Part shown: positions 3 to 37,659 of the stretch, one piece after another
How positions within the stretch are numbered: the first letter of the stretch is position 1
How the letters are laid out: every line of letters begins with the position of its first letter
DNA from: Campylobacteraceae bacterium
GTDB taxonomy: Bacteria > Campylobacterota > Campylobacteria > Campylobacterales > Sulfurospirillaceae
Reading direction: 5' to 3'
Assembly: GCA_026988975.1 (NCBI GenBank)
Contig: JALSKH010000151.1
Span: 1 to 48,027, forward strand
Length of the DNA: 48,027 nt
Position numbers and translations under genes: made by a program
Notes under the pieces: model-generated
The model's input: the letters and a program-made list of their open reading frames with translations, nothing else
Databases searched by the model: none
Told to the model about the DNA's origin: nothing

Positions 3-827
3 AAAGAGGATGAGATTCAAGATCTCAAAGCTATGCTTTTTCAAAAAAATACTCAACTTAGCTCATTTAGCAACAAAATAGTAATTTTACAATCAATCAT
101 AAATGATGCCAATGCTTCACTTTTAGAAAAAGAGAAAAGCATAGATGACTACAAAGGAAAAGTTTTAGTTTTGTCAAATGAACTAAATGTGAAAAAAAAT
201 GCGATCAATTTAAAAGATGAACAGATACTAAAACTACTCGATACTTTAGGCAGCAAAGAGACTAGATATGACAGACTCGTAGCTCAAATGCAAAAAACAA
301 AACAGAAGATTAAGAATCTCACAGGAATCCGCATAAAAGTCATAAGCGAACTTAAAAAGATCCTTGGTAAGCAGATAAGCATAGATCCAAAAAACGGTTC
401 TTTGAGATTTTCTTCAAATATCTTGTTTGACAAAGGCAAAGCTGTACTAAAAGAGAATTCTAAGCAACAGCTTAAAAAAGTATTTATAGAGTATGTTGGC
501 GCACTTTTGGGGAACAAGGATATAAAAAATCATATAGATAAAATCATCATAGAGGGTCATACTGATAGTGACGGGGGATTTTTATATAATCTTGAACTAT
601 CTCAAAAGAGAGCTTATGAAGTTATGAATTATCTTTTGACACTGGATTTTGTGAAAAAAAATCATATAAAAAATCTTATGATTGCGAGTGGAAGATCATA
701 TCTTGATCCGATTTACAATAAAGATGGTAAAGAAAATAAAGATGCTTCAAGAAGAATCGAGATAAAATTTTCACTTAAAAATCAAAATGCCATGAAAGAG
801 ATAGAGAAGATATTAGATGAAAAGTGA
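3..827 (+). CDS. OmpA/MotB-domain protein, 5'-truncated by the window edge
   Basis: The frame is open to the left edge, so the N-terminus is missing. The visible part starts with about 110 residues rich in Lys, Glu and Leu, probably coiled coil. It is followed by an OmpA-like C-terminal domain with the landmarks 'FDKGKAVLKENSKQQL', 'IIIEGHTDSDGG', 'LSQKRAYEVMNYL' and 'DASRRIEIKF'. This domain binds peptidoglycan in OmpA, Pal and MotB proteins, so the protein probably anchors a membrane assembly to the wall. A coiled coil before OmpA is also seen in MotB-like partners of MotA/ExbB-type channels; the missing N-terminus would decide. An in-frame ATG at 33 exists, but the coding signal continues upstream of it. 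The stop overlaps the next small gene. Confidence 0.8.
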   Translation, partial: KEDEIQDLKAMLFQKNTQLSSFSNKIVILQSIINDANASLLEKEKSIDDYKGKVLVLSNELNVKKNAINLKDEQILKLLDTLGSKETRYDRLVAQMQKTKQKIKNLTGIRIKVISELKKILGKQISIDPKNGSLRFSSNILFDKGKAVLKENSKQQLKKVFIEYVGALLGNKDIKNHIDKIIIEGHTDSDGGFLYNLELSQKRAYEVMNYLLTLDFVKKNHIKNLMIASGRSYLDPIYNKDGKENKDASRRIEIKFSLKNQNAMKEIEKILDEK

Positions 828-960
828 TTTTGAACCTCTAAACCTACAAGATGCAAGCTTACATGTAGATTGGCTCATAAACAAAACCAAAGAGATATAT
901 AAAATAGAAAAAAAATCTCTTTGGGAGAAGATTGTTGGCATTCTCTTAAAGATTTTTTAG
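817..960 (+). CDS. Small hypothetical protein, 47 aa
   Basis: The ATG at 817 overlaps the end of the OmpA-domain gene by 11 bases, which is typical of translational coupling. The protein begins MKSDFEPLNLQDASLHVDWL and ends with a Lys/Trp-containing amphipathic stretch, 'KSLWEKIVGILLKIF'. No signal peptide or known domain is recognised. The TAG stop at 958-960 is immediately followed by, and shares two bases with, the 34-bp arm of the hairpin at 959-1062. Its four residues LHVD are encoded by a copy of the TACATGTA palindrome. The small size leaves doubt, but the coupling and reasonable codon use favour a real gene. Function unknown. Confidence 0.5.
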   Translation: MKSDFEPLNLQDASLHVDWLINKTKEIYKIEKKSLWEKIVGILLKIF

Positions 961-1062
961 ATAGAATTACAGGGTTTATTTTGAGCTAGTTCGTGAGGCT
1001 CAGACCAACGGGAGGATTTGTCCTCTAAGAACTAGCTCAAAATAAACCCTGTAATTCTATCT
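959..1062 (+). promoter_or_regulatory. Long hairpin leader element, copy 1 (upstream of yggT)
   Basis: Bases 959-992 and 1029-1062 form a perfect 34-bp inverted repeat around a 36-base loop (993-1028). The loop reads GTGAGGCTCAGACCAA, then CG, then GGAGGATTTGTCCTCTAA. It matches the loop of a second hairpin before clpB (minus strand 37606-37571) with a single change at 1009. Inside it, GAGGA (1012-1016) can pair with TCCTC (1021-1025). Alternatively GAGG (995-998) pairs with CCTC (1022-1025) around CTC/GAG and CC/GG pairs. The 3' arm ends directly at the yggT Shine-Dalgarno AAGGAG (1063-1068). I infer a structured leader RNA; I recognise no Rfam family. Confidence 0.7.
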
Positions 1063-1075
1063 AAGGAGATAAAAA

Positions 1076-1366
1076 ATGATTGTTTTCTCAACACTGATCG
1101 AAGCTATCGCACAAATACTTCATATGGTTATCAATATATATATTTGGGTAGTGATTATAGCTGCCTTGATAACATGGGTAAGACCTGACCCTTACAATCC
1201 AATCGTACAGGTTTTGGCTAGACTAACTGAGCCCGTATATGCCTTTGTCAGAAAATACATACCGACTATCATAGGAGGAGTTGATTTAGCTCCTATCATC
1301 ATCATCTTGGGACTCCAGTTTTTGGACCTATTTGCTGTTAAGCTGCTATTTGCACTGGTTGGCTAA
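1076..1366 (+). CDS. YggT family membrane protein
   Basis: This 96-residue protein has the YggT layout: an N-terminal hydrophobic segment (about residues 9-36), the conserved 'WVRPDPYNPIVQVLARLTEP' region (about 34-53), then a second hydrophobic segment at the C-terminus (about 70-95). YggT proteins are inner-membrane proteins of uncertain role, linked in various bacteria to osmotic tolerance or cell-division protein placement. The start is well supported by AAGGAG seven bases upstream. The gene sits just after the large hairpin element and three bases before slt, so both are probably one transcript. I remember a YggT homologue next to slt in C. jejuni as well. Confidence 0.85.
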   Translation: MIVFSTLIEAIAQILHMVINIYIWVVIIAALITWVRPDPYNPIVQVLARLTEPVYAFVRKYIPTIIGGVDLAPIIIILGLQFLDLFAVKLLFALVG

Positions 1367-34949: not shown

Positions 34950-37526
34950 CTAGACAGGATTAACTTCAAAAATCAACTCATCATCGAAAGCTTTTATATT
35001 TACACTTGAGCCATCTTTTAGCTCATCTCTCAAAATCATATCTGCTAGTCTATCTTCTACTAGCTCATAAAGTGCTCTTTTTAGCGGTCTTGCGCCATAT
35101 ACTGGGTCAAATCCTGCTTGCGCTAGAAGTTCAACTGAGCTCTCATCTAACTCTATTTTGATGCCTCTCTCACTTACTCTTTTTTGTAAGTCTTTGAACA
35201 TAATGTGAACTATCTCTTTTATGTTTTCAAAACTTAGCGGGTTGAAAATCACTATATCATCAAGTCTGTTTAAGAACTCTGGCTTAAAGTATCTTTTTAT
35301 CTCGCTCATCACATCATTTTCGCAATTTTGCGGATTTTCCATGATCTTATCGCTTGCTATATTTGATGTTAGGATGATTATCGTGTTTTTAAAGTCGATT
35401 GTTACACCCTTGTTATCGGTAAGTCGCCCATCATCCAACACTTGAAGCAAGATATTAAAGACATCTGGATGAGCTTTTTCCACTTCATCAAAAAGCAAGA
35501 CACTATATGGTTTTCTTCTGACCGCTTCGGTAAGTTGTCCACCCTCATCATACCCTACATATCCTGGAGCAGCACCAATGAGTCGGCTTACTGCATGTTT
35601 TTCCATGTATTCACTCATATCAAATCTGATGAGCGCCTTTTCGCTGTCAAAGAGAAATTTTGCCAACGCTTTTGCGCTTTGGGTTTTTCCGACTCCTGTT
35701 GGTCCTAAGAACATAAAACTTCCTATTGGTTTTGAGTCATTGCTGAGTCCCGCTTTGTTTCTTTTTATGGCTCTTCCTATAGCGTGAAGTGCTCTATCCT
35801 GACCAACTACTTCTGCTCTTAATCTATCTTCTATATCCAACACTTTTTCTTTGTCACTTTGAAGCATCTTGTTTACTGGGATACCTGTCCATTTACTTAC
35901 GATTGTTGCTATCATCTCTGCATCAACACTGTTTTTAAGTAAAGTTCCACTCTCAACCATCTTCTCCCATCTCTCGTTTAACTCTTTCTCTTTTTTATCA
36001 TACTCGGGCAATTTTCCATACTCTATCTCGGCTGCTTTGTTAAAATCACTATCTCTTTTTGCGATTTGAGCCTCTCTTTTTAGAGCTTCTACCTCATTTT
36101 TAAGCTGACCTATCTCTTCAAAAACACTCTTTTCTGTGTCAAATTGCATTTGAAGTTTTTGTTGTTTCTCTTTTGCATCACTCAACTCTTTCTCAATCTC
36201 ATCGAGTCTTTTACTGTTTTTCTTCTTACTCTCCATCAAAAGAGCCTCTTTCTCCACCATTAGTCGCCCTATCACAATCTTCACACGGCTAAGTTCCAAC
36301 GGTTCACTCTCTATCTGCATCTTAAGTTCACTTGCACCCTCATCTATAAGGTCTATCGCTTTATCTGGCAAAAATCTATCTGTTATATATCTATCACTCA
36401 GTTTTGCCGCAGCCACAAGAGCACCATCAGTGATCCTCACACCATGAAATGTCTCCAAAGACTCTTTTATACCTCTTAAAATCTGCAAAGCTTCACTGAT
36501 ACTTGGCTCATTTACATTGACAGGCTGAAATCTCCTTTGAAGCGCAGTATCTTTCTCAAAATATTTTCTGTACTCTTTGAGAGTTGTTGCTCCTATAGTA
36601 TGAAGTTCGCCACGAGCAAGAGCCGGTTTTAGTATATTTGCCGCATCCATACTTCCCTCACTAGCTCCAGCGCCCACGATGGTGTGAATCTCATCTATAA
36701 ATAGTATGATATTTCCATCTTTTTTGACTTCATCTATGACCGCTTTTAGCCTATCTTCAAATTCACCCCTGTACTTCGCACCAGCTATCAATGCACTCAT
36801 ATCAAGTGCTACAACTCTTTTGTTTTGCAAACTAAGAGGAACATCTCCATTTGATATTTTCAGAGCCAACCCCTCTGCTATGGCAGTTTTACCAGTTCCC
36901 GGCTCTCCTATCAAGATAGGGTTATTTTTGGTTTTTCTGATTAAAATCTGCATGATTCTGTGTATCTCTTCATCCCTGCCGATGACCGGGTCAAGCTCAC
37001 CATCTTTTGCTTTTTTTGTCAAATCTATACCAAATTTTTCTAAAGACTCCAGATTTTCATCTGCTGTCTGTTTGTCTATCTTTTTATCTCCTCTTAATGC
37101 TTCTAGATTCTTCTTTATCTCCATTATGTCAACATACTTTGAAAATATCTCCTTGATGACTCTGTCACTTAAATTTTCAAGCAACCAAGTATCTACAGAG
37201 AGATAGCTATCTCCTTGTTTGTTCATCAAACCTTCTGCATTTTGCAAAGACTCCACCAACGCTCTTGAGAGTTTTATATTTTCTTTAGTTACGCTTGTGC
37301 TTGTCGGCAATGAGTCTATCTTGCTTTTTACTTCTAGTTCAATCGCTGCTTTGTCTATATTCATCTTATTTAAAACTTGATTTAAAATTGAAGATGAATT
37401 TGTCAGCAAAGACCACACTACATGTAGAGGCACCACTTCAGAGTTTTTAGCATGAAGTGCCAAACTCAAAGCACTCTCTATAGTTTGGGTCATTTGGTGG
37501 GTTAGTTTTTCAAATATTTTATTCAT
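34950..37526 (-). CDS. clpB: ATP-dependent disaggregase ClpB
   Basis: A Hsp100 chaperone that, with DnaK, pulls apart protein aggregates after heat stress. The 858-aa protein has an N-terminal Clp repeat domain (1-145), a first AAA+ module with GEPGTGKT (about 206-213), the long coiled-coil middle domain (about 400-525) that marks ClpB, and a second AAA+ module with GPTGVGKT (about 606-613) and '[18 protein letters not shown]'. AAGGAG lies six bases before the ATG. The 5' leader is a long hairpin with the conserved core, transcribed from a consensus promoter. No HAIR or CIRCE operator is seen. Confidence 0.97.
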
Positions 37527-37548
37527 AATCTTCTCCTTCTGTAATTTC

Positions 37549-37627
37549 AGTAAATATTCAGGGGGTTCTCTTAGAGGACAAATCCTCCCTTTGGTCTGAG
37601 CCTCACAAGAGCCCCTGAATATTTACT
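37549..37627 (-). promoter_or_regulatory. Long hairpin leader element, copy 2 (clpB 5' UTR)
   Basis: On the minus strand AGTAAATATTCAGGGG (37627-37612) pairs perfectly with 37564-37549. CTCTT (37611-37607) pairs with AAGAG (37572-37568), with three unpaired bases (37567-37565) on the 3' side. The cap, minus strand 37606-37571, is GTGAGGCTCAGACCAA, then AG, then GGAGGATTTGTCCTCTAA. This equals the cap of copy 1 (993-1028) except one base. The transcript is predicted to start at about 37625, so the 5' arm is the very 5' end of the mRNA. The 3' arm ends ten bases before AAGGAG. Confidence 0.75.
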
Positions 37628-37630
37628 AAA

Positions 37631-37659
37631 ATTATACAACTTTAGTCTATCAATGTCAA
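37631..37659 (-). promoter_or_regulatory. Consensus sigma-70 promoter of clpB
   Basis: Minus strand TTGACA (37659-37654), 17-base spacer, TATAAT (37636-37631). Both boxes match consensus exactly, which is unusual in this phylum. The expected transcription start is around 37625, giving a 5' UTR of about 99 bases occupied by the hairpin element. Confidence 0.8.

What the first reader, a model, noticed from the sequence alone, without database searches (positions are those of the whole stretch)
37549..37627. Candidate new structured RNA: near-identical 38-nt cap on two long leader hairpins (clpB and yggT)
Minus strand 37606-37569 and plus strand 993-1030 share 38 bases with one difference: GTGAGGCTCAGACCAA, then C or A, then GGGAGGATTTGTCCTCTAAGA. 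The surrounding arms differ in sequence (AGTAAATATTCAGGGG here, AGATAGAATTACAGGGTT there) yet each pairs with its own partner. Stem pairing is kept while its sequence changes, but the cap is fixed: the signature of a functional RNA. Both sit in the same orientation directly before an AAGGAG and start codon. Here a perfect TTGACA-N17-TATAAT promoter places the 5' arm at the mRNA 5' end. Two exclusive folds can be drawn in the cap: GAGGA/TCCTC, or GAGG/CCTC enclosing CTC/GAG and CC/GG. The single difference falls in the triloop of the second fold. I know of no Rfam family like this. It could be a riboswitch, a protein-binding leader or a stability element acting on a heat-shock gene.
Basis: partly seen in the sequence, partly recalled or inferred. 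Interest (0 to 1): 0.88.

Follow-up and report, generated by a model that had tools for sequence, protein, structure and literature searches.

The report
Mobile-type hairpin repeats with fixed cap
The two hairpins are real and belong to an undescribed family of about 80-base folded DNA repeats scattered (up to 42 copies per genome) through some ocean-type relatives of Campylobacter; they look like mobile repeats recognised by their fixed 22-base tip rather than a gene-control switch for clpB, and what moves or reads them is unknown.

Summary
Observation confirmed. The clpB and yggT hairpins are 2 of 42 copies in this Campylobacterales genome. I collected 197 copies, found only in some Campylobacterota (11 of 397 phylum genomes; none in viral contigs, plasmids or phages). 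Each copy has arms of about 23-39 nt, nearly perfectly complementary but free in sequence, around an invariant core CTCAGACC-NNN-GGGAGGATTTG. No Rfam hit.

A gene-leader RNA is not supported. Copies lie in both orientations before unrelated housekeeping genes. The cap is inverted between sister species at the same locus, once with identical arms. Closely related genomes lack the hairpin at both clpB and yggT. Stem covariation is partly explained by palindrome copying: at yggT the outer 15 nt of the arm is native flank, inverted on the other side.

Yet the cap is not neutral debris. In orthologous copies the core is about 97% identical while arms are 52-60% (with ascertainment bias). Arm mismatches are G.T rather than A.C on the cap strand (84 copies versus 12), whatever the gene orientation. 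Best reading: a non-autonomous mobile palindrome whose cap strand is recognised folded, as single-stranded DNA or RNA, by an unidentified factor. Neither Y1 (RAYT/IS200) transposases nor reverse transcriptases track it.

The parts
37569..37606 (-). conserved cap of the clpB copy; invariant 22-nt core CTCAGACCAAAGGGAGGATTTG at 37579-37600
   Evidence: core conservation
37607..37627 (-). 5' arm of the clpB copy
37549..37568 (-). 3' arm of the clpB copy
37631..37659 (-). clpB promoter TTGACA-N17-TATAAT; conserved in sister genomes that lack the hairpin
37533..37538 (-). AAGGAG ribosome-binding site of clpB
34950..37526 (-). clpB (context, not part of the element)
993..1030 (+). conserved cap of the yggT copy; core CTCAGACCAACGGGAGGATTTG at 999-1020
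957..992 (+). 5' arm of the yggT copy; outer 15 nt (957-971, TTAGATAGAATTACA) align with native sequence in genomes without the hairpin and include the stop codon of a 47-aa ORF
1029..1064 (+). 3' arm of the yggT copy; 1050-1064 is an inverted copy of native sequence 957-971
1076..1366 (+). yggT (context, not part of the element)

Best explanation
The hairpins are copies of one non-autonomous, mobile-type palindromic repeat (about 80-90 bp, no coding capacity). One strand, the cap strand, folds into a long hairpin whose invariant tip (4-bp stem, CUCAGACC-NNN-GGGAGGAUUUG with a CC-NNN-GG triloop) is read, as single-stranded DNA or as RNA, by an unidentified trans-acting factor that spreads or maintains it. 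In the window's genus, insertions survive mainly between a promoter's -10 box and the ribosome-binding site, in either orientation. After insertion the arms are kept complementary, and sometimes lengthened into native flank, by template switching at the palindrome; the cap can invert. Shown: repeat family, empty sites, flips, arm extension into native sequence, core conservation, cap-strand G.T preference. Inferred: mobility by transposition, recognition of the folded cap, template switching as the agent. Not known: the factor.
For: 42 copies in the own genome, 3-12 in eight of nine sister genomes, 0 in the ninth; patchy, 11 of 397 genomes of the phylum. A master arm TAGACTTCTTTTAAAACTATTTCGT occurs identically in two own copies with a star of divergent ones. 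Empty sites: clpB in G009/G006, yggT in G003/G006; a clean ~93-bp insertion at the L251 site against four empty genomes, without target duplication. Cap inverted with identical 30-nt arms between L279 and L285 (flanks 94%), plus about ten other flips. No common function among downstream genes (recA, ruvC, gap, gatB, rplM, hisD, leuC and others; named from sequence). G.T over A.C on the cap strand in sense, antisense and neither contexts: 24:7, 68:9, 37:5; 84 copies against 12, p = 2e-14. In 85 orthologous pairs, those with flanks of 72-79% have core 97%, arms 52-60%, triloop 47%.
Against: No enzyme found: Y1_Tnp is absent from G052 (15 copies) and no cap lies in the Y1 loci; reverse transcriptases do not track; no transposase-like neighbour. 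No larger autonomous relative, no target duplication, none in viruses or plasmids. Long vertical persistence at orthologous sites is more than passive debris would show. Core conservation is overstated because most loci were collected by core match.
Confidence: 0.55

Rival explanations
1. Host-kept 5'-end hairpins: once inserted at a transcription start, the long stem protects the mRNA 5' end or buffers translation, so the host keeps it whatever way the cap points; the cap is an RNA-binding-protein site.
For: In the own genome the hairpin edge lies within -10 to +14 nt of a -10 box more often than in shuffles (25 matches against 10.4) and 17 of 36 copies sit within 25 nt of a start codon against 22% expected. 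Orthologous copies persist at 70-80% flank identity.
Against: If the mRNA stem were selected, antisense copies should favour A.C on the cap strand; they favour G.T 68:9. Sister genomes do without it. In the Sulfurimonas group the copies are mostly antisense, and in G052 not at the -10 box.
Confidence: 0.15
2. A cis-regulatory leader RNA (riboswitch or protein-binding leader) for clpB, yggT and others.
For: Strong covariation (20 of 22 arm pairs with double changes); invariant core; position before the ribosome-binding site in 20 own copies.
Against: Orientation mixed or antisense; cap flips; unrelated genes; empty orthologues; arm covariation partly made by inverted copying of flank.
Confidence: 0.07
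3. A chromosomal DNA site (replication, recombination or nucleoid protein site) read on one strand at the fork.
For: In three Sulfurimonas-group genomes the cap strand runs against the fork in 34 of 42 copies (p = 7e-5; ori fixed by DnaA); flips and gene-independence fit a DNA site.
Against: No such bias in the own genome (cap-strand GC skew negative in 16 of 34); patchy presence; the Sulfurimonas bias cannot be separated from antisense-to-gene placement (only 5 copies lie before head-on genes), and shared orthologous sites make copies non-independent.
Confidence: 0.1
4. A divergent REP-like family once moved by a RAYT-type HUH enzyme that is now lost from several genomes.
For: Directional TA|G (GTAG/ATAG/TTAG) exactly at the 5' foot of the cap strand in 33 copies against 3 at the other foot; cap-strand folding; no target duplication; REPs are GTAG-tagged hairpins with frequent G-T pairs (PMC3733652).
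Against: Tag absent from most copies and inside the paired arm in the own genus; stems mostly 19-30 bp against 5-13 bp in REPs; no head-to-head dimers as a rule; no Y1_Tnp in G052, G042, G004, G005; no cap near any of 30 Y1 loci.
Confidence: 0.08
5. Independent small RNA genes transcribed from the cap strand.
For: Cap-strand G.T preference in all contexts.
Against: No -10 enrichment on the cap-strand 5' side over the other side (own genus 25 against 30 of 82 within 16 nt).
Confidence: 0.05

Closest known systems
REP elements and REPINs with RAYT (TnpA_REP)
   Same: short dispersed intergenic hairpins, vertically kept and locally amplified, one folded strand favoured with G-T pairs, 5'-foot TAG-type tag in a minority of copies
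   Different: stem of mostly 19-30 bp with freely varying sequence and an invariant 22-nt structured tip; mostly single copies; no RAYT association found
MITEs of bacteria (ERIC, Correia, RUP type; from memory)
   Same: small non-coding palindromic repeats in intergenic regions, precise empty sites
   Different: conservation is greatest at the centre, not at the terminal repeats; no target-site duplication; no related transposase known
PATE and IS200/IS605-derived hairpins (from memory)
   Same: hairpin tip recognised on one strand, no target duplication
   Different: Y1 transposase absent from G052, a two-contig genome assembly with 15 copies
Rickettsia palindromic elements (from memory)
   Same: palindromic repeats with hairpin fold
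   Different: those sit inside genes; the repeats here lie mainly between genes; sequence relation not tested
Quasipalindrome correction by replication template switching (PMC7202029)
   Same: makes imperfect inverted repeats perfect; explains near-absence of mismatches and arm growth into flank
   Different: a mutational process, which does not explain the fixed cap or the cap-strand G.T preference

Membership tests
REP/REPIN with RAYT | GTAG, GTGG or CGTC tag 0-2 nt 5' of the hairpin | tested here: not met
   GTAG/GTGG near the 5' foot in 16 of 195 copies, 2 at the other foot; exact TA|G 33 against 3: a minority trait. CGTC was not scored.
REP/REPIN with RAYT | stem of about 5-13 bp (20-40 bp element) | tested here: not met
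   arms 14-39 nt, mostly 19-30
REP/REPIN with RAYT | RAYT/Y1 gene in the genome, flanked by the repeats | tested here: not met
   no PF01797 in G052, G042, G004, G005; no cap in 30 Y1 loci
MITE | target-site duplication | tested here: not met
   filled/empty comparisons show none
MITE | related full-length transposon or transposase | tested here: inconclusive
   none among neighbours within 4 kb; Y1_Tnp and RVT_1 do not track; other families not tested
MITE | short, non-coding, multi-copy, intergenic, precise empty sites | tested here: met
cis-regulatory leader RNA or riboswitch | fixed sense orientation before the regulated genes | tested here: not met
cis-regulatory leader RNA or riboswitch | genes of related function downstream | tested here: not met
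   (identities read from sequence)
cis-regulatory leader RNA or riboswitch | match to a described RNA family | tested here: not met
   Rfam 15: no match at gathering score; at E up to 1 on five loci only miRNA-type hairpin models and other chance-level families
cis-regulatory leader RNA or riboswitch | ligand or protein response | not testable with these tools
   needs experiment

The most novel reading that the evidence does not exclude
A new class of bacterial mobile hairpin whose identity resides only in a 22-nt folded tip, recognised as single-stranded DNA or RNA by an unknown enzyme, with arms free to take on the sequence of the target site and to be rewritten by palindrome copying. It would be a mobile element defined by a cap rather than by its ends.
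Probability: 0.25. Interest if true: 0.85.

Novelty: new variant of a known kind. Interest (0 to 1): 0.6.

Why it matters
It adds a repeat family to a phylum where I found no such family described, and its conservation pattern is the reverse of ordinary mobile palindromes: fixed centre, free ends. It also warns that strong stem covariation can come from palindrome copying and should not be read alone as proof of a functional RNA. The patchy distribution, including a sister genome without copies (G009) and one with decaying caps (G007), makes the missing recognising factor findable by gene-content comparison.

Tried and rejected
Y1/RAYT transposase as mover: presence does not follow the repeats and no cap lies near the Y1 genes. 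Reverse transcriptase: 6 of 18 genomes with the repeat against 6 of 14 without it or with decayed caps, no association. Over-represented neighbour gene: no transposase-like family, mostly orthologous housekeeping clusters. Own promoter on the cap strand: left and right flanks equal. Regulon: genes unrelated. Virus or plasmid origin: no hit. Replication-strand rule: holds in the Sulfurimonas group, not in the own genus. Minimum-energy cap fold (CAGA/UUUG with CC/GG lower down): I saw no clear compensatory support, whereas CC-NNN-GG has it. A kink-turn reading of CUCA-GA-CC / GG-GAG-GA-UUUG fits by eye but the bases do not vary, so it is untested. Literature searches for such repeats in this phylum found nothing.

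Full report
CHECK. Both hairpins are real and exact. The second-stage surprise is number: an R1 covariance model built from 21 copies finds 42 in the same 2.26-Mb genome (hits on the opposite strand of the same places are the palindrome read backwards).

DISTRIBUTION. Eight of nine sister genomes carry 3-12 copies (best hits of seven at E 1e-21 to 1e-16, G007 at 8e-11), the ninth (G009, complete) none; of the other genera searched few carry them. By core pattern 11 of 397 genomes of the phylum are positive, in four families. None in IMG/VR, PLSDB or phages.

ANATOMY. In 197 copies: arms of 14-39 nt, mostly 19-30; an often mismatched junction; a 4-bp stem that covaries (GAGG/CCTC, GAGA/TCTC, GGGG/CCCC); and a core CTCAGACC-NNN-GGGAGGATTTG, unchanged in 167 of 197. 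Part of that constancy is ascertainment, since most loci were fetched by core match. Rare variants support CC-NNN-GG: C8T with G12A in three loci, C7G with G13C in one. The triloop is GNA, ANC or ANA. A minor core variant CTCGTGAGC-NNN-GGGAGGATTTG exists in G000, G002 and G003 and, with one mismatch, G004, G008, G311 and G355. Among long-armed hairpins with 20-60-nt loops in 516 kb of own sequence, 33 have the core, one the variant and four neither.

NOT A LEADER RNA. Orientation relative to the nearest start codon is mixed. At orthologous sites the cap is inverted between sister species: L279/L285 with identical arms, L247/L267, L208/L248, L251/L268. Downstream genes are unrelated. G009 and G006 keep the clpB promoter (cttgacattRatagactaaagttgtataat) followed by a short leader with no hairpin; G003 and G006 lack it at yggT.

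HOW THE ARMS STAY PAIRED. At yggT the outer 15 nt of the left arm (957-971) align with native sequence in G003 (TTTTAGATAAAATCACA) and contain the stop codon of a small ORF, while their inverted copy (1050-1064) has no native counterpart (aligned by eye). At L101 the outer TATAATTTG is the native -10 box, again copied inverted. Own copies are 97% Watson-Crick over 16 inner pairs. One G007 copy has perfect 20-bp arms but a decayed core. This is what replication template switching does to quasipalindromes (PMC7202029), so arm covariation is weak evidence for RNA function.

WHAT POINTS TO A FOLDED STRAND. Residual mismatches are G.T far more than A.C on the cap strand in sense, antisense and neither contexts. 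So the cap strand, not the mRNA of the next gene, is what pairs. That fits single-stranded DNA or an RNA copy of the element. In orthologous pairs the core is kept at 97% where arms are 52-60% and flanks 72-79% (biased as noted).

PLACEMENT. Own copies cluster at -10 boxes and before ribosome-binding sites. In three Sulfurimonas-group genomes copies run antisense to genes (35 of 42) and against the fork (34 of 42); the two cannot be separated. The own genus shows no fork bias. The name Sulfurimonas group rests on shared flanks with titled Sulfurimonas records; G172 also has the chromosome length I recall for S. autotrophica (memory, unverified).

VERDICT. A new family of mobile-type dispersed palindromes with a fixed folded tip. 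Repeat nature, empty sites, flips and arm copying are shown; transposition and the recognising factor are inferred. ORF calls were mechanical, so gene distances are approximate.

Noticed in passing
L376, L378, L379, L380 (clpB leaders of G003, G004, G001, G007); L243, L257: A different palindromic element (cap like GCCAAAGGCGAAGCTTTAGT between arms like TTCTC/GAGAA) sits in the clpB leader of sister genomes and elsewhere: probably a second dispersed hairpin family.
   Followed up: partly
L397-L402, L115, L255, L272, L112: Variant core CTCGTGAGC-NNN-GGGAGGATTTG; its 5' half repeats the TCGTGAG of the arm-cap junction, perhaps by template switching.
   Followed up: partly
G052, G172, G355 (L123-L133, L323-L366): Cap strand opposes the replication fork in 34 of 42 copies, and copies lie antisense to the nearest gene start in 35 of 42.
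   Followed up: partly
L084 (G000 C229:12421), L324 (G172:2152600), L208, L248, L270, L165: Copies lie near dnaA in more than one genus (about 370 bp from it in G000, about 640 bp in G172).
   Followed up: no
L291:10037 and other G007 copies: G007 has few copies with degenerate caps but at least one with perfect arms, as if the recognising factor was lost there.
   Followed up: no
L198:212-336, L129:9800-10000, L170:7263-7381: Pairs of copies about 100 bp apart, inverted or tandem; in L198/L145 the arm appears to run into coding sequence.
   Followed up: no
L082:7123 and 7276: A second, unrelated perfect hairpin (18-bp arms, 31-nt loop) repeated identically 153 bp apart.
   Followed up: no
window 817-960 +: A 47-aa ORF before yggT, with a similar ORF visible upstream of yggT in G003 and G006; its stop codon is part of the yggT hairpin arm.
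   Followed up: partly
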